A program made the position numbers and the translations under genes. From positions 930,001 through 994,000 of the forward strand of contig NZ_LR594659.1 in assembly GCF_901827155.1 (NCBI RefSeq): a DNA stretch of 64,000 bases. Reading direction: 5' to 3'. Source of the DNA: Variovorax sp. PBL-H6. Lineage in GTDB: Bacteria; Pseudomonadota; Gammaproteobacteria; Burkholderiales; Burkholderiaceae_C. Numbering within the stretch: the stretch's first letter is position 1; each line of letters begins with the position of its first letter. The notes below the pieces were generated by a model. The model ran no database searches, was not told the DNA's origin, and saw only the letters and a program-made list of their open reading frames with translations. This document shows positions 27,278 to 46,419 of the stretch, piece by piece.

Positions 27278-27314
27278 GGAAAAAAGTGCAGTTAAGTGGG
27301 AAAAAGTGTCCGTT
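27275..27314 (+). promoter_or_regulatory. MraZ operator: four 10-base-spaced AGTG repeats
   Basis: AGTG begins at 27275, 27285, 27295 and 27305, exactly ten bases apart, with a CGTG at 27315. The first and third copies read AGTGGAAAAA and AGTGGGAAAA. MraZ is known to bind direct TGGGN-type repeats with five-base spacers in front of its own gene. The spacing and location match that system and suggest autoregulation of the division/wall cluster. Confidence 0.75.
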
Positions 27315-27364
27315 CGTGCCTCGCCGAGGTGCACGGTGCCTTTCCAAGACAGGGGTTCGCGGTC

Positions 27365-27793
27365 GTGTTTCAAGGGGCTTCATCGCTCAATCTCGATGCC
27401 AAGGGGCGGCTTTCCGTGCCGACCCGGCATCGTGACGTCCTGAGCGCGACGGCAGGAAGCCAGCTCACGATCACCAAGCACCCCCACGGCTGCCTCATGG
27501 TGTTCCCGCGTCCTGAGTGGGAGAAATTCCGCGATCGCATCGCGGAGCTCCCGATGTCGGCACAGTGGTGGAAGCGGGTTTTCCTCGGCAATGCGATGGA
27601 CGTGGACATGGACGGCACGGGCCGCGTGTTGATCTCCCCCGAGCTGCGCGCGGCGGCCGGCATCACGCGCGACGCGCTGCTGCTCGGCATGGGCAACCAC
27701 TTCGAGCTCTGGGACAAGGCCACCTACGACGCGAAGGAGGCCGAGGCCACCCAGGGAGAGATGCCCGATGTGTTCCAGGATTTCTCTTTTTGA
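27365..27793 (+). CDS. mraZ: Transcriptional regulator MraZ
   Basis: A 142-residue AbrB-like protein of two MraZ domains. The first contains [18 protein letters not shown] and the second [20 protein letters not shown], the two DGxGRxxIP-type DNA-binding strands. It forms a ring that binds the repeated operator upstream and represses dcw transcription. GTG at 27365 gives the family N-terminus ([11 protein letters not shown]); upstream frame residues have no family similarity. The stop (TTTTGA) overlaps an in-frame TTG of rsmH. Confidence 0.93.
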
Positions 27794-27801
27794 GGCCGGC
27801 A

Positions 27802-28725
27802 GTGCAAGCGCCATGGAGCCATACGACCGTGTTGTTGAAGGAGGCAGTGGAGGCACTCCTTCCCGGCACCGCGCCCGGCTCTGGCACCTACGTGGATGCC
27901 ACCTTTGGGCGAGGCGGCCATTCCCGGGCAATCCTCGAAAGACTGTCAGAGGCCGGTCACTTGATCGCGTTCGACAAGGACGCGGAAGCGGTGGCCGAGG
28001 CAGCGCGCATCGAGGATGCGCGTTTTTCCATCAGGCACCAGAGCTTCGACCACCTGGGGGAGCTGCCGCCGCGCAGCGTCGCTGGCGTGCTGATGGACCT
28101 CGGCGTGAGCTCCCCCCAGATCGACAACCCCGTTCGGGGTTTTTCTTTTCGTTTCGACGGCCCGCTCGACATGCGCATGGACACCACGCGCGGGCAGAGC
28201 GTGGCCGAATGGCTGGCAACGGCCGAAGTGCAGCAGATGGCGGAGGTAATTCGTGACTATGGCGAAGAACGGTTTGCTGTTCAGATTGCAAAGGCGATTG
28301 CAGCTCGCCGACAAGAACGGGGCCCAATTTCAACCACCGCCGAGCTGGCCGAGCTCGTGGCTGGCACGGTCAAAACCCGCGAGCCGGGCCAGAACCCTGC
28401 AACGCGCACATTTCAGGCTCTTCGGATTTTCATCAATGCCGAGCTTGAAGAGCTGCAACAGGCGTTAGAGGCGAGTCTTTCCGTGCTGCACCCCCAGGGC
28501 CGGCTTGCGGTGATCAGCTTCCACTCGCTGGAAGACCGCATCGTGAAGCAGTTCATCGCCAGGCATTCGCGCGAGGTCTACGATCGCCGCGCGCCCTTTG
28601 CCGCGCCGCGCGCGATGAAGATGCGCGCACTTGGCCGCATCAGGCCCACGCAGGCCGAGGTGGACGCGAATCCCCGGGCCCGCAGTGCCATCCTGCGGGT
28701 GGCCGAACGCACCGGGGAGCCGTGA
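27802..28725 (+). CDS. rsmH: 16S rRNA (cytosine-1402-N4) methyltransferase
   Basis: A 307-residue SAM-dependent enzyme (MraW). [32 protein letters not shown] (SAM loop), [20 protein letters not shown] and [16 protein letters not shown] are diagnostic. It methylates N4 of C1402 in the ribosomal P site. GTG at 27802 preceded by GAGG (27792-27795) gives the expected N-terminus [15 protein letters not shown] at 27790, in frame and overlapping the mraZ stop, is a possible coupled start. A 91-base gap occupied by a dispersed repeat and a mini-ORF follows. Confidence 0.95.
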
Positions 28726-28728
28726 AAA

Positions 28729-28815
28729 ATGTTTGGCCCCCACGCTCATCACTTCGTGTATTGCGGCCCCCCGAGGGGGCGCTCATCGCCCTTCGGGCGG
28801 CCGGGCGGGCGCTGA
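28729..28815 (+). other. Bridging mini-ORF between rsmH and ftsL (repeat-derived)
   Basis: ATG at 28729 lies three bases after the rsmH stop. The 28-codon frame ends at TGA 28813-28815, one base before the ftsL ATG. The peptide begins MFGPHAHHFVYCG and is Gly/Arg/Pro-rich. Nearly all of it is encoded by the dispersed repeat. It would carry ribosomes across the gap; translation is not proven. Confidence 0.35.
28737..28812 (+). repeat. Dispersed palindromic repeat, copy 1
   Basis: This shares the core CCCCCACGCTC, then CACTTCGTGT, then CCCGAGGGGGC, and a CTTCGGGCGGCC-type end with copies at 38175-38345 (inverted, two) and 45328-45400. The centre is a C5/G5 palindrome. It fills the gap between rsmH and ftsL. 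It has diverged more from the other copies than they have from each other. Confidence 0.75.
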
Positions 28816-28816
28816 T

Positions 28817-29179
28817 ATGGTGCGCTTGAACCTCCTCCTGCTCACCGCGGTCATCGCCTCTGCGATCTACCTGGTGCATACGCAATACCAGTCGCGCCAG
28901 CTGTTCACCGAGCTGCACCGGGTGCAAAACGAAGCGCGCCGGCTGGAGCTCGAACGCGACCGGCTGGAGGTGGAGAAGCGTGCCCAGGCCACGCCGTTGC
29001 GGGTCGAACGGCTGGCCAAGGAACAGCTGAAGATGCGCACCACCACGCCGGCCATCACGCAGTACGTGCGCGCCGACGGCACGGTGATTCCGGCGGTCGC
29101 GGCGCCCGCGACCCCGACTGCGGCGCCATCAGTGCGCCCCGGAGCCGCCGCCGCGCCAGCCCGCAGGAGCGCGCAATGA
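28817..29179 (+). CDS. ftsL: Cell division protein FtsL
   Basis: A 120-residue bitopic membrane protein of the divisome. It has an N-terminal transmembrane helix (LNLLLLTAVIASAIYLV) and a periplasmic coiled coil (residues about 25-65, heptad Leu/Val with Glu/Arg). A Pro/Ala-rich tail ends it. It partners FtsB and FtsQ to activate FtsWI. Its position between rsmH and ftsI is the standard dcw order. The stop overlaps ftsI by four bases (ATGA). Confidence 0.9.
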   Translation: MVRLNLLLLTAVIASAIYLVHTQYQSRQLFTELHRVQNEARRLELERDRLEVEKRAQATPLRVERLAKEQLKMRTTTPAITQYVRADGTVIPAVAAPATPTAAPSVRPGAAAAPARRSAQ

Positions 29180-30930
29180 GCCGTCGCAGCCGCAGCGTCC
29201 AATACACCACCAGCCCGCTGCTGGCGAGCAAGACGCCAGTCTGGCGCAGCAAGTTCATCGTCGCCACCATCGCCTTCGGCTTCCTGGTGCTCGCCGGCCG
29301 TGCGGCCTATGTGCAGGTGGTCGGCAACGCGTTCTTTCAGCGCCAGGGCGAGGTGCGCTTCGCCCGCACGCTGGAGCTGCCAGCCAATCGCGGCCGCATC
29401 CTGGATCGCAACGGGCTGCTTCTCGCCTCCAGCGTGGTGGCGCCCAGCATCTGGGCCATTCCCGAGGACATCGAGCGCGAAGACCCGGACGTCAAGGCCA
29501 AGCTGCGCCAGGTCGCGAAGCTGCTCGGCATGGCGCAGAAGGACTTCGACAAGAAGCTGGAGGACGAGGACAAGACCTTCGTCTGGATCCAGCGCCAGGT
29601 CGACGAGCCGATCGCCAAGCAGATCGCTGCCCTCAACATCAAGGGCCTGTACCAGCGCAAGGAATACAAGCGCCAGTACCCGGAGGGCGAAGCCGCCGCG
29701 CACGTGGTGGGCTTCACCAACGTGGAGGACAACGGCCAGGAAGGCATCGAGCTGGCCTTCAACAAGGAACTGGCCGGACGCCCAGGCTCCAGGCGCGTGA
29801 TCAAGGACCGGCTCGGCCGCGTGGTCGAAGGCATCGGCGAGCAGGTCCCTCCGCTCGACGGCAAGGACATCCAGCTCTCGGTCGACAGCAAGGTGCAGTT
29901 TTTCGCCTATCAGAAGCTGCGCGACGCGGTCACGGCCAACAAGGCCAAGGCGGGCAGCGTGGTGGTGCTGGACGCCATCACCGGCGAAGTGCTGGCAATG
30001 GCCAACTACCCGAGCTACGTGCCCGACAAGCGGCAGAGCCTCACCGGCGAGCAGTTGCGCAACCGCGCGCTCACCGACACCTTCGAGCCAGGCTCGACCA
30101 TGAAGCCCATCACGATCGCGATGGCGCTGGAGGCAGGGCGCATCAAGCCGCAGACGCCGGTCGATACCTCCCCGGGCCGCTACAGCATTGGCGGCTTCAC
30201 CATCAGCGACACCCACAATTACGGCCTGCTGACGGTCGAGGGCGTGATCCAGAAGTCCAGCAACGTGGGCGCGCTCAAGATCGCGCAGAAGATGACCCCG
30301 CACGAGATGTGGGACACCTACACCGCGCTCGGCTACGGGCAGAAGCCGCAGCTCCGGTTCCCCGGCGCCGTGACCGGTCGCCTGCGCCCTTGGAAGAGCT
30401 GGAAGCCGGTCGAGCAGGCCACCATGGCCTATGGCTACGGCCTCTCGGCCTCGCTCTTCCAGATGGCGCATTCGTACACCGCCTTCGCGCACGACGGCGC
30501 CATCATTCCCGCGAGCATTCTCAAGAGCCCCGATCCGGCGGTAGGCGTGCAGGTGTTTTCGGCGCAGAACGCGCTGGCCGTGCGCAAGATGCTGCAGATG
30601 GCGGCCGGCCCGGGCGGCACCGGCCAGCGCGCGCAGACCATCGGCTACTCGGTGGGAGGCAAGTCGGGCACTGCGCACAAGCAGGTCGGCAAGGGCTACG
30701 CGAGCAACAAGTACCGTGCCTGGTTCACCGGCATGGCGCCCATCGAGAAGCCGCGCATCATCGTGGCGGTGATGATCGACGAGCCGAGCGCCGGCCAGTA
30801 CTTCGGCGGCCTGGTGGCGGCACCCGTGTTCAGCGAGGTCGTGCAGCAGACGCTGCGCATGATGAACGTACCGCCGGATCTCGCAGTCAAACCGCTGGTC
30901 GTGACCAACGGCGTGGAGGAGAGCTTCTGA
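29176..30930 (+). CDS. ftsI: Peptidoglycan transpeptidase FtsI (PBP3)
   Basis: A 584-residue class B penicillin-binding protein of the septal wall machinery. It has a short cytoplasmic tail, one transmembrane helix (about residues 25-45), a pedestal domain (RGRILDRNGLLLA) and a transpeptidase domain. The catalytic motifs are STMK (Ser307), SSN in IQKSSNVGA and KSGT in GGKSGTAHK. It crosslinks septal peptidoglycan with FtsW. Overlaps of four bases with ftsL and one base with murE (TGATG) indicate coupled translation. Confidence 0.97.
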   Translation: MSRRSRSVQYTTSPLLASKTPVWRSKFIVATIAFGFLVLAGRAAYVQVVGNAFFQRQGEVRFARTLELPANRGRILDRNGLLLASSVVAPSIWAIPEDIEREDPDVKAKLRQVAKLLGMAQKDFDKKLEDEDKTFVWIQRQVDEPIAKQIAALNIKGLYQRKEYKRQYPEGEAAAHVVGFTNVEDNGQEGIELAFNKELAGRPGSRRVIKDRLGRVVEGIGEQVPPLDGKDIQLSVDSKVQFFAYQKLRDAVTANKAKAGSVVVLDAITGEVLAMANYPSYVPDKRQSLTGEQLRNRALTDTFEPGSTMKPITIAMALEAGRIKPQTPVDTSPGRYSIGGFTISDTHNYGLLTVEGVIQKSSNVGALKIAQKMTPHEMWDTYTALGYGQKPQLRFPGAVTGRLRPWKSWKPVEQATMAYGYGLSASLFQMAHSYTAFAHDGAIIPASILKSPDPAVGVQVFSAQNALAVRKMLQMAAGPGGTGQRAQTIGYSVGGKSGTAHKQVGKGYASNKYRAWFTGMAPIEKPRIIVAVMIDEPSAGQYFGGLVAAPVFSEVVQQTLRMMNVPPDLAVKPLVVTNGVEESF

Positions 30931-32432
30931 TGCTGGCGCTCCACAGTCCTCTCGATGCCGCGGGCTGGTTGAAGTCCCGCGTGGGCGGCGCGCTGCATGG
31001 CGACAGCCGCCCGCTGCGCGCGGGCGACGGCTTCGTCGCCTGGCCGGGCGCTGCCACCGACGGTCGCCGCCACGTCGCGGCCGCGCTTGGCCAGGGCGCG
31101 GTGGCCTGCCTGGTGGAGGCAGACGGCGTCGAGTCCTTCGGCTTCGACGAGGGCGACGAGCGCATTGCGCGCTATGCCGGCCTGAAGGCGGCCACCGGGC
31201 CGATCGCTGCCGCCTTCCACGGCGACCCGTCATCGCGCCTGGACCTGCTGGCCGTCACCGGCACCAACGGCAAGACCTCGACCGCGTGGTGGCTGGCGCA
31301 GGCGCTTGCCGCGCACGACGCCACGCGGCCCTGCGCCGTGATGGGCACGCTCGGCATCGGCGTGCCCCCGGATCTCACCTACACCGGCCTCACCACGCCC
31401 GACCCGGTGATGCTGCAGCGCGAGCTGCTCGCCTTTGCGGATCGCGGTTTCGGTGCCTGCGCCGTCGAGGCCTCCTCGATCGGCATCGCCGAACGCCGGC
31501 TCGACGGCACGCGCATCGCGGTGGCAGTGTTCACCAATTTCACCCAGGACCACCTGGACTACCACGGCAGCATGGACGCGTACTGGCAAGCGAAGGCCGA
31601 GCTGTTCCGCTGGCCGGGCCTGCGCGCCGCGGTGGTCAACATCGACGACGTTCACGGCGCCAGCCTCGTGGCCAGCCTCGTCGAACGCGGCGAGGGTGCG
31701 CCCGAGGTCTGGACGGTGTCGGCCGCCGGCGCGCCGGCCCGGCTCGCGGCGAAGAACATCGGCCACGACGCCCAGGGCCTGCAGTTCACTGTGGTGGAGC
31801 AGGGCGAGGCGCCGCTGCGCCTGGAGACGCAGTTGATCGGCCAGTACAACGTGGCCAACCTGCTGGGCGTGCTCGGCACCCTGCGCGCGCTCGGCCTCAC
31901 GCTCGCCCAGGCCGTGGCCGCCTGCGCGCGGCTGGACAGCGTGCCCGGCCGCATGGAGCGTGTGAGCGTTCCGGGTCGGCCGCTGGCGGTGGTGGACTAC
32001 GCCCACACGCCCGACGCGCTCGACAAGGCGCTGGCCGGCCTGCGGCCGCTGGCGCGCCAGCGCGGTGGGCAGCTCTGGTGCATGTTCGGCTGCGGCGGCG
32101 ACCGCGACACCGTCAAGCGGCCGATGATGGGGGCCGTGGCCGAGAAGCAGGCCGACCGGGTCGTGCTGACCAGCGACAACCCGCGCAGCGAGAAGCCCGG
32201 CGCGATCATCAGCCAGATCCTGCTGGGGCTGTCGCGCCCCGAAGCGGCCCAGGTCGAGCCCGACCGCGCCGAGGCGATCCGCCAGACCTTGGCACAGGCC
32301 GCGCCCGACGACGTGGTGCTGCTCGCCGGCCGCGGCCACGAAGCCTGGCAGGAAATCGCCGGTGAGCGCATCGCGTTCTCCGACCGGGCGCACGCCATCG
32401 ATGCGTTGACGCATGCAAGGAGCGCAAGATGA
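30930..32432 (+). CDS. murE: UDP-MurNAc-L-Ala-D-Glu:meso-diaminopimelate ligase
   Basis: A 500-residue cytoplasmic Mur ligase. The P-loop is [10 protein letters not shown] (about residue 110), the middle domain has NFTQDHLDYHG, and the C-terminal domain has DNPRSEKP (about residue 416). DNPR marks specificity for meso-diaminopimelate over lysine. It adds the third amino acid of the stem peptide. Start is fixed by the TGATG overlap with ftsI; it overlaps murF by four bases. Confidence 0.97.
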   Translation: MLALHSPLDAAGWLKSRVGGALHGDSRPLRAGDGFVAWPGAATDGRRHVAAALGQGAVACLVEADGVESFGFDEGDERIARYAGLKAATGPIAAAFHGDPSSRLDLLAVTGTNGKTSTAWWLAQALAAHDATRPCAVMGTLGIGVPPDLTYTGLTTPDPVMLQRELLAFADRGFGACAVEASSIGIAERRLDGTRIAVAVFTNFTQDHLDYHGSMDAYWQAKAELFRWPGLRAAVVNIDDVHGASLVASLVERGEGAPEVWTVSAAGAPARLAAKNIGHDAQGLQFTVVEQGEAPLRLETQLIGQYNVANLLGVLGTLRALGLTLAQAVAACARLDSVPGRMERVSVPGRPLAVVDYAHTPDALDKALAGLRPLARQRGGQLWCMFGCGGDRDTVKRPMMGAVAEKQADRVVLTSDNPRSEKPGAIISQILLGLSRPEAAQVEPDRAEAIRQTLAQAAPDDVVLLAGRGHEAWQEIAGERIAFSDRAHAIDALTHARSAR

Positions 32433-33877
32433 GCGCGCCGCAGGAAGACGCACCGATGATGACGCTCGCCAAGGCGCTCGCCTGGGTGCCCGGCGCACGC
32501 CTGGTCGGCGACCCGGAAGTGGCCGTCTCGCGCGTGCACACCGACACCCGTACTCTCGCGGCAGGCGACCTGTTCGTCGCGCTGAAGGGTGAGCGCTTCG
32601 ACGCCAACGATTTCCTGGCCGATGCGCGTGCGCGCGGCGCGGTCGCGGCCATCGCCCATCGCGGGCTTGAGGCGGCCGGGCTGGCCGGGCTGGAAGTGCC
32701 CGACACCCTCGCCGCACTCGGCGCCCTGGCCGCGGGCTGGCGAGCCCAGTTCGATCTGCCGCTGGTCGCGGTCACCGGCAGCAACGGCAAGACAACCGTC
32801 ACGCAGATGATCGCCTCGATCCTGCGGGCTGCCGGTGTGGACCGGGCGCTGGCCACCATCGGCAACCTCAACAACGAGATCGGCCTGCCGCTGACGCTGC
32901 TGCGCCTGCGCGAGCGGCACCAGCTGGCCGTGGTCGAGCTGGGCATGAACCATCCGGGCGAAATCGCCCGGCTGTCGGCAATCGCGTGTCCCACCATCGC
33001 GCTGGTCAATAACGCGCAGCGCGAGCACCAGGAGTTCATGGCCACGGTCGAGGCCGTCGCGCGCGAGAACGGCGCGGTGTTCGCCGCGCTGCCGGACAAC
33101 GGCACCGCCGTCTTCCCCTACGGCGACACCTTCACGTCGCTGTGGAACGAGATGGCGCACGAGGGCGCGCCGCGGCGCTGCCTGAGCTTCGGCGAGCAAG
33201 CCAACGCGGACATCGCGCTCGGCCATGCCGAGTGGAAGCATGGCGCCTGGCAGTTCGAGGCCCGCACGCCGCTCGGCGAAATCTCCACCACCCTGCGCAT
33301 CGCCGGGCGTCACAACGTGGTGAACGCACTGGCGGCCATCGCCTGCGCGCTGGCCTGCGGGGTATCGCTCGAAAAGATCGCCGAAGGGCTCGCCGCCTTC
33401 GAGCCGGTCAAGGGGCGCTCGCGGGCGAGCGAGGTACTGCTGGCGGACGGCCGGGCGATCACGGTGGTCGACGACAGCTACAACGCCAACCCCGATTCCG
33501 TGCGCGCCGCCGTCGACGTGCTCGGCGGCCTGCCGGGCCCGCGCCTGCTGGTGCTGGGCGACATGGGCGAGGTCGGCGATCGTGGTCCGCAGTTCCATGC
33601 CGAGGTCGGCGCCTGGGCGGCCGAGCGCGGCATCGAATCGCTGTTCGCAATGGGCGACGCATCGATCCATGCGACCGCGGCCTACACGCGCAGCGGTGGC
33701 AGCGAGGCGCGCCACTTCGACGACATCGACAGGCTCAACGCCGCCGTGCTGGCGCAACTGCCGCGCGTCGCCAGCGTGCTGGTCAAGGGCTCGCGCTTCA
33801 TGCGGATGGAGCGCGTCGTCCAGGCCCTCGCCTGCGCTTCAGCACAACAAGACAACAACAAGGAGGGCCGGCCGTGA
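32429..33877 (+). CDS. murF: UDP-MurNAc-tripeptide:D-alanyl-D-alanine ligase
   Basis: A 482-residue Mur ligase adding the D-Ala-D-Ala dipeptide. Motifs are [19 protein letters not shown] (P-loop), [33 protein letters not shown] and [10 protein letters not shown]. The 3' end carries a strong Shine-Dalgarno AGGAGGG (33861-33867). It is placed not for mraY directly but six bases before a GTG (33874) that overlaps the murF stop. The start overlaps murE (ATGA). Confidence 0.96.
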
Positions 33878-33909
33878 TTCATGCGCCGCGCACGTTCGCA
33901 TCATGCTGA
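33874..33909 (+). other. Bridging mini-ORF between murF and mraY
   Basis: GTG at 33874 overlaps the murF stop (GTGA) and is preceded at six bases by AGGAGGG. The 11-codon frame ([11 protein letters not shown]) ends at TGA 33907-33909, which overlaps the second in-frame ATG of mraY (TGATG). This looks like a translational relay across the gap. Confidence 0.4.
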
Positions 33910-35081: not shown

Positions 35082-35086
35082 GCTCG

Positions 35087-36886: not shown

Positions 36887-38178
36887 GCTCGACGGCAGCC
36901 GCAACGCCCAACAAGGCCCCGCGCTTCTGGGAGGGCTGGTTCAGCCGTGCCAAGAGCGGCATGGACGCCCTGCCCATGCACCTGCCGGTGCGCCTGGGCA
37001 GCGCCGGCATGACGCAGACCAAGGCCGCGCCGGTGCGCGTGCTGGGCTTCGACCAGGCGCTGGCCTGGGTCACGGTCGCGCTGCTGGCCTGGGGGTTGGT
37101 GATGGTCTATTCGGCCTCGATCGCGCTGCCCGACAACCCGCGCTTTGCGCGCGCCGGCTACAGCCCGGTCTTCTTCCTCACGCGGCACATCGCCTCGATC
37201 GTGATCGCCTTCGTCGCGGCGCTGCTGGCCTTCCAGGTGCCGATGCGGACCTGGGAGCGCGCGGCGCCGTGGCTCTTCGTGGCCTCGCTGCTGCTGCTGG
37301 TCGCGGTGCTGATCCCGCACATCGGCATCAACGTCAACGGTGCGCGCCGCTGGCTGCCGATGGGTTTCATGCGCTTCCAGCCCTCGGAGCTGGCCAAGCT
37401 CGCGATGATCCTCTACGCCGCCAGCTACATGGTGCGCAAGATGGAGATCAAGGAGCGCTTCTTCCGCGCCGTGCTGCCCATGGGCGTGGCGGTGGTGGTG
37501 GTCGGCATGCTGGTGATGGCCGAGCCCGACATGGGCGCCTTCATGGTGATCGCCGTGATCGCCATGGGCATCCTGTTCCTGGGCGGGGTCAATGCGCGCA
37601 TGTTCTTCCTGATCGCGGCGCTGGTGGTGGTGGCCTTCTCCACCATCGTGGCCTCCAGCTCGTGGCGGCGCGAGCGCATCTTTGCCTACCTCGACCCGTG
37701 GAGCGAAGAGCATGCGCTGGGCAAGGGGTACCAGCTTTCGCATTCGCTGATCGCCATCGGCCGCGGCGAGATCTTCGGCGTCGGCCTGGGCGGCAGCGTC
37801 GAGAAGCTGCACTGGCTGCCCGAGGCGCACACCGACTTCCTGATGGCGGTGATCGGCGAGGAGTTCGGCCTCGTCGGCGTGCTGCTGGCCATCGGCCTCT
37901 TTCTCTGGCTGACCCGCCGCATCATGCACATCGGCCGCCAGGCCATTGCGCTCGACCGCGTGTTCGCGGGCCTGGTGGCGCAGGGCGTCGGCATCTGGAT
38001 CGGTTTCCAGACCTTCATCAACATGGGCGTCAACCTGGGCGCGCTGCCGACCAAGGGGCTCACCCTGCCGCTGATGAGCTTCGGCGGCTCGGCGATCCTG
38101 ATGAACGTGGTGGCGCTGGCCATCGTCCTGCGCATCGATTACGAGAACCGCGTGCTGATGCGGGGAGGCCGCGTATGA
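36883..38178 (+). CDS. ftsW: Septal peptidoglycan glycosyltransferase FtsW
   Basis: A 431-residue SEDS polymerase with ten or so helices. A Thr/Ala-rich cytoplasmic N-terminus of about 55 residues is longer than usual. Motifs are [50 protein letters not shown] and [20 protein letters not shown] with SFGGSAI. It works with FtsI. Just before the stop, GGAGG (38164-38168) stands six bases ahead of an ATG (38175) that overlaps the stop. Murein-gene coupling is displaced here by a tandem repeat. Confidence 0.96.
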
Positions 38179-38345
38179 GCGCCGCGCCGGGCCGCCCCAA
38201 GCAAGCGAACGCCCCCTCGGGGGGCAGCGAGGACACGCCAGTGCCGAGCGTGGGGGTCGGTATGAGCGCCGCGCCGGGCCGCCCCAAGCAAGCGAACGCC
38301 CCCTCGGGGGGCAGCGAGGACACGCCAGTGCCGAGCGTGGGGGTC
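38175..38345 (-). repeat. Dispersed repeat, copies 2 and 3, in exact tandem
   Basis: 38175-38258 and 38262-38345 are 84-base identical direct repeats, 87 bases apart. Each is the reverse complement of the element at 45328-45400 (CCCCCACGCTCGGCACT, then GTGTCCTCGCTGCC, then CCCGAGGGGGC, then TTGGGGCGGCCCGGCG). Each copy begins with ATGAGC, the same six bases that start murG at 38351. Exact identity of the two copies implies a recent duplication. Confidence 0.92.
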
Positions 38346-38354
38346 CACACATGA
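38175..38354 (+). other. Bridging ORF between ftsW and murG (two 29-codon units)
   Basis: ATG 38175 overlaps the ftsW stop (ATGA) and has GGAGG six bases upstream. The 59-codon frame reads [20 protein letters not shown]... twice and stops at TGA 38352-38354, overlapping the murG ATG (ATGA). The 87-base period equals 29 codons, so duplication kept the frame and the coupling. Confidence 0.45.
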
Positions 38355-39412
38355 GCAGAACGGCATTGGTCATGGCGGGCGGCACAGGCGGCCACATCTT
38401 CCCCGGCCTGGCCGTGGCCGAAGCCCTGCGCGAGCGCGGCTGGCGCGTGCACTGGCTGGGCGCGCCCGGCAGCATGGAAGAGAAGCTGGTGCCGCCGCGC
38501 GGCTTCGCCTTCGAGCCCGTGCAGTTCGGCGGCGTGCGCGGCAAGGGCCCCATCACCCTGGCCCTCCTGCCCATGCGCCTGCTTCGCGCCTTCTGGCAAA
38601 GCCTCGCCGTCGTGCGCCGCGTGCGGCCCGACGTGGTGCTGGGCCTGGGCGGCTACATCACCTTTCCTGGCGGCATGATGAGCGTGCTGCTCAACAAGCC
38701 GCTCGTGCTGCACGAACAAAACTCGGTGGCCGGGCTCGCCAACAAGATCCTGGCCGGCGTGGCCGACCGCGTCTTCACCGCCTTCCCGAACGTGATGAAG
38801 AAGGCGCAATGGATCGGCAACCCGTTGCGCGCAGCCTTCCTCTCGCAGCCCGACCCGGCGGCGCGCTTCGCAAGCCGCAACGGCCCGCTCAAGCTGCTGG
38901 TGGTGGGCGGCAGCCTCGGCGCGAAGGCGCTCAATGCCGTGGTGCCCAAGGCCCTGGCCTGCATCGCCCCCGAGCAGCGGCCGACCGTCACGCACCAGAG
39001 CGGCGCGAAGCAGATCGACGAGCTGCGCGCCAACTACGCCGCTGCCGGCGTCGAGGGCGAGCTCACCCCCTTCATCGAAGACACCGCACGCGCCTATGCC
39101 GATGCCGACCTGATCGTCGCGCGCGCCGGCGCCAGCACCGTCACCGAGATCGCGGCCGTCGGCGCGGCTGCCCTGTTCGTGCCTTTCCCTTCCGCCGTGG
39201 ACGACCACCAGACCACCAACGCCCGCTTCCTGGTCGACGCGGGCGGGGGCTGGCTTGTCCAACAAACCGAATTGACACCCGAATTGCTGGCCGACTTGCT
39301 ACAGAAGACCGGGCGCCCCGCGCTCATGGAACGCGCCGTGAAGGCCAAGACGATGCAGAAGACCGAGGCCGTCGAAGTGATGGTGCGCGCCTGCGAGGAA
39401 CTGGCCAAATGA
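38351..39412 (+). CDS. murG: UDP-GlcNAc:lipid I N-acetylglucosaminyltransferase MurG
   Basis: A 353-residue peripheral membrane GT-B enzyme forming lipid [19 protein letters not shown], the hydrophobic patch, [15 protein letters not shown] and [16 protein letters not shown] are signatures. The ATG has no Shine-Dalgarno (upstream is the repeat end GTGGGGGTCCACAC). It is overlapped by the stop of the repeat-encoded bridging ORF, so its translation probably depends on coupling. The stop overlaps an ATG (39409) that starts a second bridging frame. Confidence 0.96.
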
Positions 39413-39495
39413 AGCACGCCATCAGGCACATCGACCACTTCGTCGCGTCCAGCGAGCACGCCGACGAACCGGGCTGCACGAAAGGCCGCGCATGA
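39409..39495 (+). other. Bridging mini-ORF between murG and murC carrying a duplicate murC start
   Basis: ATG 39409 overlaps the murG stop, has GAGGAA eight bases upstream, and stops at TGA 39493-39495 overlapping the murC ATG. The 28-residue peptide begins [14 protein letters not shown]. MurC itself begins [15 protein letters not shown]. Over the first eight codons all five base differences are silent. It looks like a partial duplication of the murC 5' end retained as a relay ORF. Confidence 0.5.
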
Positions 39496-40967
39496 AGCAT
39501 GCAATCCGACATATCCACTTCGTCGGCATCGGCGGCTCCGGCATGAGCGGCATCGCCGAGGTCCTGTTCAACCTGGGCTACAAGATCACGGGTTCGGACC
39601 TGGCCGACAGCGCCACGCTCAAGCGCCTCGGCGGCCTGGGCATCGGCACCTTCGTGGGCCACGATGCGGCCCACATCGCGGGCGCCGATGCGGTCGTGAC
39701 CTCCACCGCCGTGCATGCAGGCAATCCCGAGGTGGTGGCTGCACGCGAGAAGCGCATTCCCGTGGTGCCGCGCGCGCTGATGCTGGCCGAGCTGATGCGC
39801 CTCAAGCAGGGCATTGCCATCGCCGGCACGCACGGCAAGACCACCACGACCAGCCTGGTGGCCAGCGTGCTCGCCGCCGCCGGACTGGACCCGACCTTCG
39901 TCATCGGCGGCCGGCTCAACAGCGCGGGCGCCAATGCGCAGCTGGGCAGCGGCGACTACATCGTGGTGGAGGCCGACGAGTCGGACGCTTCCTTCCTCAA
40001 CCTGCTGCCGGTCATGGCCGTGGTGACGAACATCGATGCCGACCACATGGAGACCTACGGACACGACTTCGCGAAGCTCAAGAAGGCCTTCGTCGACTTC
40101 CTGCACCGCATGCCCTTCTACGGCGTGGCGATCCTGTGCACCGACGACCCGGCAGTGCGCACGATCTTGACGGAGGTCTCCTGCCCGATCACCAGCTACG
40201 GCTTCGGCGACGACGCCCAGGTGCGCGCCATCGACGTGCGCGCAGTGGGCCAGCAGATGCACTTCACCGCGCAGCGGCGCAACGGCGTCACGCTGCCCGA
40301 CCTGGACATCGTGCTCAACCTGCCCGGCGAGCACAACGTGCGCAACGCGCTGGCGGTGATCGCGGTCGCGGTCGAGCTCGGCGTGCCTGACGAGGCGGTG
40401 CAGCGCGGCCTGGCCGATTTCAAGGGCGTGGGCCGGCGTTTCCAGCGCTATGGGGATGTCGCACTGGGCGGCAGCGCGCAGAGCCTGGGCAGCTTCACGC
40501 TGATCGACGACTACGGCCACCACCCGGTCGAGATGGCGGCCACCATTGCCGCCGCGCGCGGTGCCTTCCCGGGGCGCCGCCTGATGCTGGCCTTCCAGCC
40601 GCACCGCTACACCCGCACGCGCGACTGCTTCGAGGATTTCGTCAAGGTCATCGGCGCTGCCGACGCGGTGCTGCTGGGCGAGGTCTATGCCGCCGGCGAG
40701 CCGCCCATCGTGGCCGCCGACGGCCGCTCGCTGGCGCGCGCCTTGCGCGTGGCGGGCAAGGTCGAGCCGGTGTTCGTCGACGACATCACCGCCATGCCGC
40801 AGGCCATCCTGGACAACGCACGCGACGGCGACGTCGTCATCTGCATGGGCGCGGGCTCCATCGGCGCCGTGCCCGCCAGGGTGGTCGAGCAGGGCGGCGC
40901 GGCGTCGTCCTCCATCACATCCGAGCGCACGTCCGGGCAGGACATGCGCGAAGGGAGGTCCCTGTGA
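39492..40967 (+). CDS. murC: UDP-MurNAc:L-alanine ligase
   Basis: A 491-residue Mur ligase committing UDP-MurNAc to peptide addition. Motifs are [71 protein letters not shown] and [14 protein letters not shown]. The C-terminus is Ser/Thr-rich. A weak AAAGG precedes the ATG. It overlaps the upstream mini-ORF stop and, at the end, the ddlB GTG start (GTGA). Confidence 0.97.
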
Positions 40968-41923
40968 ACCCGCAAGACTTCGGCAAGGTTGCGGTGCTGT
41001 TCGGCGGCACCTCGGCAGAGCGCGAGATTTCCATCATGTCGGGCACCGGCGTGCTCGAGGCACTTCGCTCGCGCGGCGTCGATGCGCACGCCTTCGACCC
41101 GGCCGACCGCGAGCTGGTCGAACTCAAGCACGAGGCTTTCGCGCGCTGCTTCGTGGTGCTGCACGGCCGCCATGGCGAGGACGGCACGGTGCAGGGGGCG
41201 CTGGAGCTGCTGGGCATCCCTTACACCGGCTCCGGCGTCATGGCCTCTGCCGTGGCCATGGACAAGGTCATGACCAAGCGCATCTGGCAGGCCGATGGGC
41301 TGCCCACCCCGCGCTACGCGCGCCTGGCCTTCGACCAGCAGAGCCGCAAGCAGATCATGGCGGTCCCCGACGTGCTGGGCCTGCCGCTGATCGTGAAGCC
41401 GCCGCGCGAGGGCTCCTCCATCGGCGTGACCAAGGTCCAGGGCTACTCGCAGATGCAGGACGCCGTCGCCCTCGCCGTGCGCTACGACTCCGACGTGCTG
41501 TGCGAGGAGTTCATCGAAGGCGAGGAAGTCACCTGCGCCGTGCTGGGCAGCGGCCTCGACGCGCAGGCGCTGCCCGTGGTGCGCATCGCCGCGCCCGAGG
41601 GCGCCTACGACTACCAGAACAAGTACTTCACCGACGACGTGAAATACCACTGCCCGAGCGGCCTGCCAGAGACCGAGGAGCAGGAGATCCGTCGGATCTC
41701 GCTGGCGGCCTACCACCAGCTCGGCTGCCGCGGCTGGGGCCGCGCCGACCTGATGATCCGCGCCAGCGACCGCAAGCCCTTCCTGCTGGAAATGAACACC
41801 TCGCCGGGCATGACCAGCCATTCGCTGGTGCCGATGTCGGCGCGCGCGGCGGGCATTTCCTACGAGGACTTGTGCCTGCGCGTGCTGGCTTCCGCCACGC
41901 TCGATTCGAAGGCGGAGATCTGA
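40964..41923 (+). CDS. ddlB: D-alanine:D-alanine ligase
   Basis: A 319-residue ATP-grasp enzyme. [50 protein letters not shown] and [18 protein letters not shown] are diagnostic. GTG start with AAGGGAGG (40951-40958) six bases ahead, overlapping the murC stop. It supplies the dipeptide used by MurF. A one-base overlap (TGATG) leads to ftsQ. Confidence 0.97.
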
Positions 41924-42714
41924 TGGCCGAGAGCATCCCCGTGCCCTTCGACGTCAAGCTCATGAACGTGACCGCGACGCTGGTGTACGCGTTGTTCGCG
42001 CTCGTGCTGCTCGCGGCGGGTGCGTGGTGGGTGCTGCGCCAGCCCTTCTTTCCGCTCGCCGGGATCAAGGTCGACGGCGAAGTCACGCACAACAATGCGG
42101 TCACGCTGCGCGCCAATGTCGCGCCGCAACTGGCCGGCAACTTCTTCACTGTCGACCTGGCGAAGGCCCGCGCCGCCTTCGAGGCCGTGCCCTGGGTGCG
42201 CAAGGCGGTGGTGCGGCGCGAGTTCCCCAACAAGCTGCGCGCGACGCTGACCGAGCATGTGCCGGTGGCGCACTGGGGCGAAGAGGCGGATTCGCGCCTG
42301 ATCAACGGCTTCGGCGAAGTCTTCGATGCCAATGTCGCCGAGGTCGACGACCTGCTCCCTCGGCTCGACGGCCCGCCGGAGCAGGCGGGCCAGGTGCTGG
42401 GCATGTACCGCGTGCTGCAACCGCTGTTCGCGCCCCACGAGCTGGTGATCGAGGAATTGAAGCTGTCGCGCCGCGGCAGCTGGAGCGTGGTGCTGGACAG
42501 CGGCGCGGTGCTCGAACTCGGGCGCGGTCGCGCCGAGGAAGTGGCCGCGCGTACGCAGCGTTTCCTGACCACGGTGACGCAGGTCGCCCGGCAGTACGGG
42601 CGCACCGTTGCCTCCATCGAGGGCGCCGACCTGCGGCACAACGAGGGCTATGCGCTCCGGCTGCGCGGCGTCACCACGGTCACGACAGAGCCGCCATCCC
42701 CCAGGAAGAAATAG
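41923..42714 (+). CDS. ftsQ: Cell division protein FtsQ
   Basis: A 263-residue bitopic protein. It has a cytoplasmic N-terminus, one transmembrane helix (residues about 15-40), a POTRA domain (FFPLAGIKVDGEVTHNNAVT, then VPWVRKAVVRREFPNKLRAT) and a beta domain (VIEELKLSRRGSWSVVLDSG). It links the FtsBL pair to the divisome. Start codon overlaps the ddlB stop. A 15-base gap with AGAGGAA precedes ftsA. Confidence 0.94.
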   Translation: MAESIPVPFDVKLMNVTATLVYALFALVLLAAGAWWVLRQPFFPLAGIKVDGEVTHNNAVTLRANVAPQLAGNFFTVDLAKARAAFEAVPWVRKAVVRREFPNKLRATLTEHVPVAHWGEEADSRLINGFGEVFDANVAEVDDLLPRLDGPPEQAGQVLGMYRVLQPLFAPHELVIEELKLSRRGSWSVVLDSGAVLELGRGRAEEVAARTQRFLTTVTQVARQYGRTVASIEGADLRHNEGYALRLRGVTTVTTEPPSPRKK

Positions 42715-42729
42715 AGAACAGAGGAATTC

Positions 42730-43959
42730 ATGTCCAAGGAATACAAAGACCTGGTTGTCGGACTCGACATCGGCACCGCCAAGGTGATGGCGGTGGTGGC
42801 CGAGGTGCTGCCGACGGGCGAGCTCAAGCTGGCGGGGCTGGGCATCGCGCCGAGCAACGGGCTCAAGCGCGGCGTCGTGGTGAACATCGACGCCACGGTG
42901 CAGAGCATCCAGCAGGCGCTGAAGGAAGCGGAGCTGATGGCCGACTGCAAGATCAGCCGCGTCTACACCGGCATCACGGGCAGCCACATCCGCGGCATCA
43001 ATTCGAGTGGCATGGTGGCGGTCAAGGACAAGGAAGTCACGCAGGCCGACGTGGCGCGCGTGGTGGAGACCGCGCGTGCGATCAACATCTCCAGCGACCA
43101 GCGTTTGCTGCTGGTGGAGCCGCAGGAATTCGTCATCGACGGCCAGGACGTGAAGGAGCCGATCGGCATGAGCGGCATGCGCCTGGAAGCCAAGGTCCAC
43201 ATCGTCACCGGCGCGCAGAGCGCGGCCGAGAACATCATCAAGTGCGTGCGCCGCTGCGGCCTGGAGGTCGACCAGCTGATGCTGAACCCGCTGGCCTCCA
43301 GCCTGGCGGTGCTGACCGAGGACGAGCGCGAGCTCGGCGTGGTGCTGGTGGACATCGGCGCGGGCACCACCGACGTGGCCATCTTCACCAACGGCGCGAT
43401 CCGCCACACCGCGGTGATCCCGATTGCGGGCGACCTCATCACCAGCGACATCGCGATGGCGCTGCGCACGCCCACCAAGGACGCCGAGGACATCAAGGTC
43501 GAGAACGGCTATGCCAAGCAGCTGCTGGCCGATCCCGAGACGCAGGTCGAGGTGCCCGGGCTCGGCGACCGCGGGCCGCGCATGCTCAGCAAGCAGGCGC
43601 TCGCCGGCGTGATCGAGCCGCGCGTTGAAGAGATCTTCTCGCTGGTGCAGCAGGTGGTGCGCGAGTCGGGCTACGAAGAGGTCTTGTCCTCCGGCGTGGT
43701 GCTGACCGGCGGCAGCGCGGTGATGCCCGGCATGGTCGAGCTCGGCGAAGACATCTTCCTGAAGCCGGTGCGGCGCGGCATTCCGAAGTATTCGAGCGCG
43801 CTCTCGGACATGGTCGCGCAGCCGCGCGCCGCGACCGTGATGGGCCTGCTCGAGGAGGCACGCCATGCACGGCTGCGCGGCTTCAAGGTGGCCCAGAAGA
43901 ACGGCTCGGTGAAAACCGCGTTCGGCCGGTTCAAGGACTTCATCGTGGGGAACTTCTGA
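42730..43959 (+). CDS. ftsA: Cell division protein FtsA
   Basis: A 409-residue actin-fold protein that anchors FtsZ to the membrane. GLDIGTAKVMAVVAE (phosphate 1), VVLVDIGAGTTDVAIF (phosphate 2) and VVLTGGSAVMPGMVEL (adenosine) are present, plus a 1C domain. The C-terminal amphipathic helix (FGRFKDFIVGNF) is the membrane-targeting sequence. The stop is followed at two bases by an ATG that opens a 32-codon mini-ORF leading to ftsZ. Confidence 0.97.
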   Translation: MSKEYKDLVVGLDIGTAKVMAVVAEVLPTGELKLAGLGIAPSNGLKRGVVVNIDATVQSIQQALKEAELMADCKISRVYTGITGSHIRGINSSGMVAVKDKEVTQADVARVVETARAINISSDQRLLLVEPQEFVIDGQDVKEPIGMSGMRLEAKVHIVTGAQSAAENIIKCVRRCGLEVDQLMLNPLASSLAVLTEDERELGVVLVDIGAGTTDVAIFTNGAIRHTAVIPIAGDLITSDIAMALRTPTKDAEDIKVENGYAKQLLADPETQVEVPGLGDRGPRMLSKQALAGVIEPRVEEIFSLVQQVVRESGYEEVLSSGVVLTGGSAVMPGMVELGEDIFLKPVRRGIPKYSSALSDMVAQPRAATVMGLLEEARHARLRGFKVAQKNGSVKTAFGRFKDFIVGNF

Positions 43960-43961
43960 CG

Positions 43962-44060
43962 ATGGACAGCACACCACTTTGGCGCGCAAGGGGCAGCCCC
44001 CCACGGCATTTCAATGAGCGATGGCGGCGCACCGGACCGCCAAAGGAGCGTAGACGGTGA
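43962..44060 (+). other. Bridging mini-ORF between ftsA and ftsZ
   Basis: ATG 43962 begins two bases after the ftsA stop. The 32-codon, Arg/Pro-rich frame (MDSTPLWRARGSPP...) ends at TGA 44058-44060. That stop overlaps a GTG at 44057 (GTGA) that is in frame with ftsZ and has AAGGAG eight bases upstream. It fills most of the 157-base gap. Confidence 0.35.
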
Positions 44061-44104
44061 CCCTCAAAACAACCCATTCGTACAAACAAGGCAACTGCAA
44101 TATC

Positions 44105-44110
44105 AAGGAG
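44105..44110 (+). promoter_or_regulatory. Shine-Dalgarno of the standard ftsZ start
   Basis: AAGGAG six bases before ATG 44117. A second AAGGAG (44043-44048) stands eight bases before the in-frame GTG 44057, so two translation starts are equally well equipped. Confidence 0.75.
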
Positions 44111-44116
44111 TCAGAA

Positions 44117-45322
44117 ATGGCCATCGAAATGATCGAAATCGAAGAGTTCAACCAAGGCACGCAGATCAAGGTGATCGGCGTGGGCGGCGGCGGCGGCAAT
44201 GCGGTCGCCCACATGATCGAGCGCCGTGTGCAGGGTGTCGAGTTCATCTGCGCCAACACCGACGCGCAGGCGCTCCAGCGCAGCAACGCGCACAAGACCA
44301 TCCAGCTCGGTACCAACGGACTGGGCGCGGGCAGCAAGCCCGAGAGAGGGCGCGATGCGGCCGAGGCGGCGGTGGACGACATCCGCGGCGCCATCAACGG
44401 TGCGCACATGCTGTTCATCACGGCCGGCATGGGCGGCGGCACCGGCACCGGCGCGGCGCCGGTGATTGCGCGCGTGGCCAAGGAGATGGGCATCCTCACG
44501 GTCGGCGTGGTGACCAAGCCCTTCGACTGGGAAGGCGGCCGCCGCATGACCAATGCCGACAGCGGCCTGACCGAGCTCGAGGCGAACGTCGACTCGCTGA
44601 TCGTGGTGCTCAACGAGAAGCTGCTCGACGTGCTGGGCGAGGACGTCACGCAGGACGAGGCCTTCGCGCACGCCAACGATGTGCTGAAGAACGCCGTCGG
44701 GGGCATCTCGGAGATCATCAACGAGTACGGCGGCGTGAACGTCGACTTCGAGGACGTGCGCACCGTCATGGGCGAGCCCGGCAAGGCCATGATGGGCACG
44801 GCCGCGGCCTCCGGCCCCGATCGCGCGCGCATCGCAGCCGAGCAGGCGGTGGCCTGCCCGCTGCTCGAGGGCATCGACCTGTCGGGCGCCAAGGGCGTGC
44901 TGGTGCTGGTCACGGCGTCGAAGAACTCGCTCAAGCTGAGCGAATCGAAGTTGGCAATGACCACCATCCGCGCCTTCGCCGCGGAAGACGCGCACGTGAT
45001 CTACGGCGCCGCCTACGACGAGAGCCTGGGCGACGAGATGCGCGTGACCGTGGTCGCCACCGGCCTGTCGCGCCAGGACGCGCGCCGCCAGGCGCCGACC
45101 CTGGAGGTGATCCGTACCGGCACGGACAACATCCCGTTCGGCGTGCCGACGCTCGGCGGCACGATGCAGGGTCAGCCTGGCCAGCCCAACTACGACGGCA
45201 TGGCCGTGCCCAGTGTGTGGCGCACCAACCGCACCATGGCTGCGGCCAAGGTGGATGCGCTGTCGACAGGGGGCATGGACGACATCGAGATCCCGGCCTT
45301 CCTGCGCCGCCAGGCAGACTGA
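44117..45322 (+). CDS. ftsZ: Cell division GTPase FtsZ
   Basis: A 401-residue tubulin-like GTPase forming the Z ring. [14 protein letters not shown], the tubulin signature [22 protein letters not shown] and [11 protein letters not shown] are present. The C-terminal conserved peptide [11 protein letters not shown] binds FtsA and other partners, after a short linker. ATG 44117 gives the common N-terminus [17 protein letters not shown] 44057 would add 20 residues (MTLKTTHSYKQGNCNIKESE) and couples to the upstream mini-ORF. The stop overlaps an ATG (TGATG) of a repeat-derived frame. Confidence 0.97.
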
Positions 45323-45414
45323 TGTTGCCCCCACGCTCGGCACTTCGTGTCCTCGCTGCCTCCCGAGGGGGCTGCGTCCGCCTTGGGGCGGCCCGGCGGC
45401 GGACGGCTCGATGA
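45322..45414 (+). other. Bridging mini-ORF between ftsZ and lpxC (repeat-derived)
   Basis: ATG 45322 overlaps the ftsZ stop (TGATG). The 30-codon frame ([14 protein letters not shown]...) ends at TGA 45412-45414. That stop overlaps ATG 45411 (ATGA), which is in frame with lpxC. The frame lies almost wholly in repeat copy 4. Confidence 0.4.
45328..45400 (+). repeat. Dispersed palindromic repeat, copy 4
   Basis: CCCCCACGCTCGGCACTTCG, then TGTCCTCGCTGCCTCCCGAG, then GGGGGC ... CCTTGGGGCGGCCCGGCG. It is closest to the inverted tandem copies between ftsW and murG. It sits exactly in the ftsZ-lpxC gap. Confidence 0.85.
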
Positions 45415-45466
45415 CGGCTATTGCGGAGATAGCGAGGCGCACGGCGCGCCGGATGCCTCGCGCTCC

Positions 45467-45472
45467 TAGAAT
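45467..45472 (+). promoter_or_regulatory. Candidate -10 of lpxC
   Basis: TAGAAT, with the predicted transcription start (about 45479) beside the GTG at 45480. No good -35 is visible. It would allow lpxC to be made from its own leaderless message as well as from the dcw transcript. Confidence 0.4.
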
Positions 45473-45479
45473 CGCTGCC

Positions 45480-46403
45480 GTGCTCCAGCAACGAACCCTG
45501 AAATCCATCACCCGCGCCGTTGGCGTGGGGCTGCACAGCGGCCAGCGGGTCGAGCTCACGCTTCGGCCGGCGCCGGTCGATGCCGGCATCGTGTTCCGCC
45601 GCGTCGACCTGCCCGAGCCCGTCGAGATCCCGATGCGGGCCGAGGCCGTGACCGATACACGGCTGGCATCGACCGTCTCTGCCAAGGGCGCCAAGGTGCA
45701 GACCGTCGAACACCTGATGTCGGCCTGCGCGGGGCTGGGCATCGACAACCTGCTGATCGACATCACGGCCGACGAAGTGCCGATCCTCGACGGCTCGGCC
45801 TCGTCCTTCGTGTTCCTGCTGCAGAGCGCGGGCATCGAGCTGCAGAACGCGCCGCGCCGCTTCATCCGCGTCACCCGGCCTGTCGAGGTGCGCGAGGGCG
45901 AGGGGCATGAGCTCAAGTGGGCGCGCCTCGTGCCCTACCACGGCTACAAGCTGAGCTTCGAGATCGACTTCGATCACCGCGTCGTCAACGCGAGCGGCCA
46001 GCGCTTCGAATTCGACCTGGGCTCGGGCTCCTACAGCCGCGACATCGCGCGCGCGCGCACCTTCGGCTTCACAAAAGAGGTCGAGTACATGCGCTCCAAG
46101 GGCCTGGCGCTCGGCGGCGGTCTCGACAACGCGATCGTGATGGACGACACCAAGGTGCTCAATGCCGGCGGGCTTCGCTACGACGATGAATTCGTCAAGC
46201 ACAAGATCCTCGACGCCATGGGCGACCTCTACGTCATCGGCCGCCAACTGCTCGCGGCCTATAGCGCGTTCCGATCGGGGCATGCGCTCAACAACAAGCT
46301 GCTGCGCGAGCTGCTGGCCCAGCCGGACGCCTACGAGATCGTCAGCTTCGACGACCAGCGGCAGGCGCCGGCCGGCTTCGCCGAAGTCGCGCGGGCCTGG
46401 TAA
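45480..46403 (+). CDS. lpxC: UDP-3-O-acyl-N-acetylglucosamine deacetylase
   Basis: A 307-residue Zn2+ enzyme and committed step of lipid A synthesis. [36 protein letters not shown] (Zn His), [17 protein letters not shown] (Zn His and Asp) and [14 protein letters not shown] are diagnostic. GTG 45480 matches the usual N-terminus and length. ATG 45411 is in frame, overlaps the preceding mini-ORF stop, and would add 23 Arg/Ala-rich residues. Its place after ftsZ is the common proteobacterial order. Confidence 0.96.
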
Positions 46404-46419
46404 GTCGCCAAGACACACG

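What the first reader, a model, noticed from the sequence alone, without database searches (positions are those of the whole stretch)
28725..45480. Larger intergenic gaps in the dcw cluster are spanned by mini-ORFs linking upstream stop to downstream start
Seen directly: ATG 28729-TGA 28815 (rsmH to ftsL), GTG 33874-TGA 33909 (murF to mraY), ATG 38175-TGA 38354 (ftsW to murG), ATG 39409-TGA 39495 (murG to murC), ATG 43962-TGA 44060 (ftsA to ftsZ) and ATG 45322-TGA 45414 (ftsZ to lpxC). In four cases (murF-mraY, ftsW-murG, murG-murC, ftsZ-lpxC) both ends are overlaps (ATGA, GTGA or TGATG). In rsmH-ftsL and ftsA-ftsZ the start lies two or three bases after the upstream stop; the rsmH-ftsL frame ends one base before ftsL. 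Three starts have good Shine-Dalgarno sequences placed for the mini-ORF. Elsewhere adjacent dcw genes mostly overlap or sit within 15 bases. The inference is a translational relay that keeps stoichiometry across gaps created by insertions.
Basis: partly seen in the sequence, partly recalled or inferred. Interest (0 to 1): 0.8.

Follow-up and report, generated by a model that had tools for sequence, protein, structure and literature searches.

The report
Tiny relay genes bridging operon gaps
Where extra DNA has landed between tightly linked cell-division and cell-wall genes of Variovorax-like bacteria, it is mostly kept in a form that holds a tiny gene which could hand the ribosome from one gene to the next.

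Summary
The six mini-ORFs exist as described, but two (ftsA-ftsZ, ftsZ-lpxC) stop 56 and 65 nt short of the real next start. For rsmH-ftsL, ftsW-murG and murG-murC comparison strongly supports a relay. Among 190 non-redundant dcw loci, gaps of 20-300 nt there favour one residue modulo 3 (40 of 45, 44 of 65, 25 of 26), while ftsQ-ftsA, ftsA-ftsZ and ftsZ-lpxC show no bias. Setting in-frame N-terminal extensions aside, 96 of 109 inserts are bridged by a strict chain of overlapping ORFs, six of them two-step; after random one-base deletions or additions about 26% and 13% of trials stay bridged. The inserts have unrelated origins: a dispersed palindromic repeat, copies of the murC 5' end, a FxQN...LMRGGRV ORF, others. 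The repeat also sits elsewhere in the genome, bridged between codirectional genes or in frame inside genes. One murG-murC mini-ORF family carries a segment complementary to its own murC, so it may also gate murC. Outside the family the rule is not shown (2 of 7 inserts bridged). Closest precedent: mycobacterial MIRUs. Translation of the mini-ORFs is inferred; no ribosome data were available.

The parts
28729..28815 (+). rsmH-ftsL mini-ORF (28 codons) through a reverse-oriented repeat copy; an alternative relay is the GTG ORF 28722-28829, whose start overlaps the rsmH stop and whose stop lies 12 nt inside ftsL
   Evidence: relatives
28737..28816 (-). copy of the dispersed palindromic element
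   Evidence: G000:C1:958737-958816
33874..33909 (+). murF-mraY mini-ORF (11 codons), GTGA ... TGATG; strong SD in front of it, none in front of mraY ATG 33903
   Evidence: frame not shared by most relatives
38175..38354 (+). ftsW-murG mini-ORF (59 codons), ATGA ... ATGA, one frame through two tandem element copies
38173..38258 (+). first tandem element copy (86 nt)
38260..38345 (+). second tandem element copy, identical to the first over 86 nt
39409..39495 (+). murG-murC mini-ORF (28 codons) beginning with a diverged copy of the murC 5' end (MKHAIRHI)
39460..39468 (+). GCCGACGAA segment of the mini-ORF, reverse complement of murC nt 28-36 (39519-39527); predicted hairpin encloses the murC start
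43962..44060 (+). ftsA-ftsZ mini-ORF; ends 56 nt before ftsZ ATG 44117, so not a relay to the real start
45322..45414 (+). ftsZ-lpxC mini-ORF through a reverse-oriented element copy; ends 65 nt before lpxC GTG 45480
45328..45398 (-). copy of the dispersed palindromic element
   Evidence: G000:C1:975328-975398

Best explanation
rsmH-ftsL, ftsW-murG and murG-murC are junctions whose commonest empty state has stop and start overlapping or adjoining (mostly ATGA). Repeat elements or duplicated junction sequence have repeatedly been inserted there. Shown: surviving inserts nearly always keep a mini-ORF whose start overlaps or closely follows the upstream stop and whose stop overlaps or lies near the downstream start; some tandem inserts give two-step chains. 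Inferred: the ribosome that ends the upstream gene restarts on the mini-ORF, translates it and restarts again on the downstream gene, so that a gap of about 25-270 nt does not uncouple the genes; inserts without an open relay frame are removed by selection. In one murG-murC type the mini-ORF also carries a segment complementary to murC nt 23-44, so its translation may open a hairpin around the murC start.
For: Gap residues 0/1/2 for gaps of 20-300 nt: rsmH-ftsL 1/40/4, ftsW-murG 5/44/16, murG-murC 1/25/0, ftsL-ftsI 0/4/0; ftsQ-ftsA 32/35/39, ftsA-ftsZ 60/56/63, ftsZ-lpxC 40/48/40. Strict chains bridge 31 of 43, 39 of 40 and 26 of 26 inserts (extensions set aside) at the three main junctions, against 10 of 102 at ftsQ-ftsA and 4 of 115 at ftsZ-lpxC; one-base deletions leave 17%, 38% and 23% of trials bridged, one-base additions 14%, 9% and 16%. 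With a looser stop window all 45 rsmH-ftsL gaps are relays (38 in the relay residue, 5 in another frame) or extensions (2). Six two-step chains: L059, L073, L112, L154, L173 at ftsW-murG and L150 at murG-murC. 24 of 24 insert-sequence clusters bridged by majority, 21 of 24 in the relay residue, binomial p = 6e-8 against 1/3. The inserted state changes at least 30, 33 and 22 times on a protein tree. Of 32 classified repeat copies of the genome, 15 lie between codirectional genes and are bridged and 11 lie in frame inside genes.
Against: No ribosome profiling or reporter data. Downstream genes with inserts keep Shine-Dalgarno strengths like those without, and murC has stronger ones, so direct initiation is not excluded. 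Twelve of 43 rsmH-ftsL inserts fail the strict chain test (stop 3-12 nt inside ftsL); one of 40 at ftsW-murG (L161) fails. ftsA-ftsZ, used as an unbiased junction, is still bridged in 68 of 177 against 14% for shuffles and 23-26% for one-base changes. murF-mraY 3 of 32 and murC-ddl 1 of 4 are bridged. Outside the family only 2 of 7 inserts were bridged, one of them doubtful. Related inserts are not independent events; gain and loss were not told apart.
Confidence: 0.82

Rival explanations
1. By-product: duplications and repeat insertions at ATGA junctions leave ATGA at both ends by mechanism, and high GC keeps frames open; nothing is translated or selected.
For: Both ATGA ends can follow from duplication of the junction; length-keeping shuffles stay bridged in 46%, 30% and 70% of trials at the three main junctions.
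Against: It does not explain the length residue: 21 of 24 clusters in one class, many different lengths in the same class, no bias at three other junctions, low survival of the chain after one-base changes.
Confidence: 0.08
2. The mini-ORFs encode functional micropeptides and the frame is kept for the peptide.
For: FxQN...LMRGGRV and [11 protein letters not shown] recur in many loci; third codon positions differ somewhat more often in the FxQN family (1105/1056/1385 at positions 1/2/3).
Against: Unrelated peptides fill the same junction with the same architecture; the middle of the peptides is poorly conserved; nonsynonymous codon differences outnumber synonymous ones about 3 to 1 in the two families and 4 to 1 in the repeat type (only pairs differing by 40% or less were used).
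Confidence: 0.07
3. The inserts act as RNA structures (hairpins, stabilisers, attenuators); the open frame is secondary.
For: The element is palindromic; 14 murC-like mini-ORFs carry a segment complementary to their own murC, better matched than to other genomes' murC (permutation p = 4e-4, relatedness not corrected).
Against: Structure alone gives no reason for a length residue or for start/stop overlap at both ends; none of the 12 other murG-murC inserts shows the complementarity beyond shuffles.
Confidence: 0.1
4. A selfish element that is tolerated because it is codable: the repeat inserts widely and survives where it is translated through, as a gene insert or as a relay. Compatible with the main reading for that family.
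For: Of 32 own copies 11 are in frame inside genes, 15 bridged, 6 codirectional and not bridged, 0 between convergent or divergent genes.
Against: Does not cover the inserts that are not this repeat; absence from convergent/divergent spacers is weak evidence (p about 0.05 by intergenic length in the window), and in other genomes 2 of 29 copies lie in such spacers.
Confidence: 0.4

Closest known systems
Mycobacterial interspersed repetitive units (MIRUs; Supply et al. 1997, not read; described in review PMC12548453, passages seen)
   Same: Short, apparently mobile repeats at start codons; an ORF inside the repeat is coupled at -4 to the gene, so that insertion disturbs expression little. Tandem copies (recalled).
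   Different: Another phylum; palindromic; readable in both orientations; also in frame inside genes; and the junction rule here also holds for inserts of unrelated origin. MIRU sequence was not compared.
Rickettsia palindromic elements (RPE; PMC10969869, passages seen)
   Same: Palindromic repeat inserted in frame in unrelated genes.
   Different: Described there as about 150 bp and as gene fusions; the passages seen do not mention operon junctions.
REP families (PMC3733652, passages seen)
   Same: Palindromic repeats close to or overlapping coding regions; some lie within ORFs, and GTAG REPs often provide the stop codon of a flanking ORF.
   Different: 20-40 bp; the passages seen describe no bridging ORF; Variovorax, Acidovorax, Comamonadaceae and Burkholderiales have no occurrence in its main text.
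Translational coupling by termination-reinitiation or by unfolding (PMC6728339, passages seen)
   Same: ATGA and TGATG overlaps; upstream translation can open structure at the downstream start.
   Different: Couples neighbouring genes directly; here a further ORF of no fixed sequence is interposed, sometimes two.
Integron ORF-11/17/18 and short ORFs in attC (PMC8876359, passages seen)
   Same: A short ORF delivers ribosomes to a downstream cassette; a short ORF in attC is said to favour expression across a stem-loop.
   Different: Integron recombination sites; no length rule across many genomes in the passages seen.

Membership tests
[quoted passage not shown]
   forward-type copies L003, L007, L014, L016: (A/G)TGA ... 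ATGA, gap 82
MIRU | insertion at DTGA coupling sites of operons (recalled) | tested here: inconclusive
   DTGA at forward-type junctions, but reverse-type copies start their ORF behind the stop, and copies also lie inside genes
MIRU | one orientation relative to transcription (recalled) | tested here: not met
   both orientations are bridged and both occur inside genes
MIRU | sequence homology to the mycobacterial unit | not tested
   no MIRU sequence was fetched; not filed as a member
Rickettsia palindromic elements | palindromic element in frame in unrelated protein genes | tested here: met
   11 of 32 own copies; unmatched stretch at the insert in PEP carboxylase and UvrA alignments
Rickettsia palindromic elements | homology to RPE families | not tested
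   no RPE sequence compared; works alike, not filed as a member
REP with RAYT transposase | Y1 transposase gene flanked by the repeat | tested here: not met
   one PF01797 protein in the genome, C1:1335236-1335562; nearest listed copy at 1350355, about 15 kb away
termination-reinitiation coupling | overlapping or adjoining stop and start codons | tested here: met
termination-reinitiation coupling | downstream output depends on upstream translation | not testable with these tools
   needs reporters or ribosome profiling

The most novel reading that the evidence does not exclude
In this bacterial family, DNA that survives at a coupled junction of the division and cell-wall cluster does so by becoming a relay ORF, whatever its origin. 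Relay units flanked by direct repeats that include SD and ATGA can expand or contract into multi-step chains, and one family (murG-murC) has in addition evolved a co-varying hairpin that makes murC translation conditional on the relay.
Probability: 0.45. Interest if true: 0.85.

Novelty: new variant of a known kind. Interest (0 to 1): 0.72.

Why it matters
It would show that translational coupling between essential genes is strong enough to leave a length-modulo-3 mark in DNA that looks non-coding, offer a class of mini-ORFs whose role is to carry ribosomes rather than to make a peptide, and explain how small repeats can enter operons without polar damage. Genome scans could use the mark to find which junctions are truly coupled, and two-step relays make it testable how often one ribosome can restart in succession.

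Tried and rejected
ftsA-ftsZ and ftsZ-lpxC as relays in the window: rejected, the mini-ORFs miss the real starts. Micropeptide reading: weak codon signal. Duplex energy between murG-murC mini-ORF tails and own versus foreign murC gave only p = 0.06; exact complementarity gave p = 4e-4. RAYT link: one Y1_Tnp protein, not next to a copy. FxQN unit as a dispersed element: in one genome (G363) only its two tandem copies matched over most of the query; the rest were short or weak (40 of 173 candidates scored); not checked in other genomes. (element in the genome of L088) was given wrong coordinates (a piece upstream of the insert; the insert is at 705-789), so its single hit says nothing about the element. 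Rfam: nothing reached a gathering score in 27000-46500. Universality: in 60 genomes of other families inserts are rare and mostly unbridged. Loss of downstream Shine-Dalgarno after insertion: not seen. A covariance model was considered and not built. Rows dropped: 11 near-duplicate loci (201 to 190); junctions without both neighbours found or with gaps beyond 400 nt; gaps under 20 or over 300 nt in the insert counts; in-frame N-terminal extensions; L104 (apparent rsmH frameshift) only, it is still in the counts.

Full report
WHAT IS THERE. The window lies in an unnamed 6.87 Mb genome (C1:930001-994000); its MurG is 97% identical to that of Variovorax sp. WDL1. All six mini-ORFs translate as stated. 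Homology places the ftsZ start at 44117 and the lpxC start at 45480 (Pfam domains of ten gene products), so the mini-ORFs before them end 56 and 65 nt short.

WHAT THE GAPS ARE MADE OF. rsmH-ftsL, ftsW-murG and ftsZ-lpxC hold copies of one palindromic element of about 80-90 bp; ftsW-murG holds two, identical over 86 nt. The murG-murC gap begins with a diverged copy of the murC 5' end. In relatives the same junctions hold these or unrelated sequence: an ORF ending in LMRGGRV like FtsW itself, murC 5' copies, and others.

COMPARATIVE TEST. Gap residues modulo 3 for gaps of 20-300 nt: rsmH-ftsL 1/40/4, ftsL-ftsI 0/4/0, ftsI-murE 0/3/4, murE-murF 0/2/5, murF-mraY 23/9/0, ftsW-murG 5/44/16, murG-murC 1/25/0, murC-ddl 3/1/42, ddl-ftsQ 0/2/9, ftsQ-ftsA 32/35/39, ftsA-ftsZ 60/56/63, ftsZ-lpxC 40/48/40. 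Residue 1 is the one in which a start overlapping the upstream stop reads into a stop overlapping the downstream start. Gaps in which the downstream frame itself is open back to a start near the upstream stop were classed as possible N-terminal extensions and set aside: 2 at rsmH-ftsL, 4 at ftsI-murE, 5 at murE-murF, 25 at ftsW-murG (16 of residue 2, 9 of residue 1), 42 at murC-ddl, 7 at ddl-ftsQ. All residue-2 gaps at ftsI-murE, murE-murF and ftsW-murG fall in that class.

CHAINS. A strict search (each start -4 to +3 from the previous stop) bridges 31 of 43 rsmH-ftsL, 39 of 40 ftsW-murG and 26 of 26 murG-murC inserts, 4 of 4 ftsL-ftsI, 2 of 3 ftsI-murE, 2 of 2 murE-murF, 3 of 4 ddl-ftsQ, 1 of 4 murC-ddl, 3 of 32 murF-mraY, 10 of 102 ftsQ-ftsA, 68 of 177 ftsA-ftsZ and 4 of 115 ftsZ-lpxC. 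The 12 rsmH-ftsL misses have an open relay frame that ends 3-12 nt inside ftsL. Six inserts at ftsW-murG and murG-murC are two-step chains. Length-keeping shuffles show that openness alone is weak evidence; one-base changes show that length matters. ftsA-ftsZ is above its shuffles (38% against 14%), which I cannot explain; shared descent of a conserved spacer is one possibility.

INDEPENDENCE. On a FastTree of five concatenated proteins (189 rows, no support analysis) the inserted state needs at least 30, 33 and 22 changes; gains and losses are not told apart. Single-linkage clusters at 60% identity, a grouping that probably merges unrelated inserts too, give 24 clusters, all bridged by majority, 21 in the relay residue (p = 6e-8 against 1/3). 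The ftsW-murG and murC-type units repeat the junction sequence at both ends, so slippage or recombination could add or remove whole relay steps; this is inference.

THE ELEMENT. Two own-genome searches give 33 copies at E <= 0.001, a lower bound because only 40 of 55 and 40 of 86 first-look candidates were scored. 32 were classified with a simple codon-usage gene caller written here: 11 in frame inside genes, 15 codirectional and bridged (13 junctions; one of them by a start at +2 rather than a mini-ORF, and at ftsW-murG the caller took part of the mini-ORF for a gene), 6 codirectional and not bridged (5 places; L029 is bridged with the gene end used), none between convergent or divergent genes. 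Database comparisons show the insert as an unmatched or split stretch in PEP carboxylase, UvrA, a T2SSE ATPase and an Ldh_2 protein. In 29 best copies from 29 other genomes: 14 bridged, 6 in genes, 5 unbridged, 2 without called genes, 1 convergent, 1 divergent; the query was a bridged copy and some of these junctions look orthologous, so this sample leans towards relays. A search of 150 genomes of the family found a match in 102 (80 of 115 genera; at most 6 candidates scored per genome).

THE murC GATE. In 14 loci whose mini-ORF begins like murC, the rest contains an exact reverse complement of 6-14 nt to murC nt 23-44 of the same genome, beyond shuffles at p < 0.05 in 11 of 14; none of 12 other inserts reaches that; matched genomes beat mismatched ones (p = 4e-4; relatedness not corrected). 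The window's segment is 39460-39468 (p = 0.04). The energy version of the test was not significant (p = 0.06).

LIMITS. Sixty genomes from other families of the class (60 of the 132 with a match; stretches) had few inserts at ftsW-murG (55 tested) and murG-murC (57 tested): 7 of 20 nt or more, 2 bridged, one of these by a chain of three very short ORFs. The rule is shown for this family only. Translation of the mini-ORFs is inferred.

LITERATURE. The review PMC12548453 (passages) describes MIRUs as inserting at start codons with an internal ORF coupled at -4, and short ORFs that deliver ribosomes; the original MIRU paper was not read. RPEs: PMC10969869 (passages). Coupling mechanisms: PMC6728339 (passages). 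Integron ORFs: PMC8876359 (passages). REP families: PMC3733652 (passages). PMC12817950 was searched for MIRU and coupling without an occurrence. In the rows listed by the searches I saw no paper on relay mini-ORFs in this family; apart from the papers named, only titles and abstract starts were seen, some lists were capped, and the library lacks most subscription papers.

Noticed in passing
L004, L005, L006, L013, L017, L020, L021, L024, L025, L256, L258: The palindromic element lies in frame inside 11 genes, among them PEP carboxylase, UvrA, an AcrB-type transporter and a T2SSE ATPase.
   Followed up: partly
window 43960-44117: The ftsA-ftsZ spacer has an ATG close behind the ftsA stop in many relatives and recurring peptide-like motifs (ARGSPP, RWRCTGPP); possibly a conserved structured RNA or small ORF. 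Its bridging rate exceeds shuffles.
   Followed up: no
ftsW-murG junction of L059, L073, L112, L154, L173: FxQN-type mini-ORF in tandem duplicate; in most of these each unit ends like the FtsW C-terminus, so direct repeats flank the units.
   Followed up: partly
L031, L034, L037, L051, L055 at murG-murC: A different hairpin-rich insert of 154-157 nt, also open as a relay.
   Followed up: no
G000:C1:1335236-1335562 (L259): The only Y1_Tnp (PF01797) match found in the genome; possible mobiliser of the repeat, not adjacent to a copy.
   Followed up: no
window 45402-45552: Weak Rfam match to sRNA Xoo8 (26 bits against a gathering score of 90) over the lpxC 5' region.
   Followed up: no
L104, rsmH 3' end: Apparent frameshift in rsmH that mimics a 214-nt gap.
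   Followed up: partly
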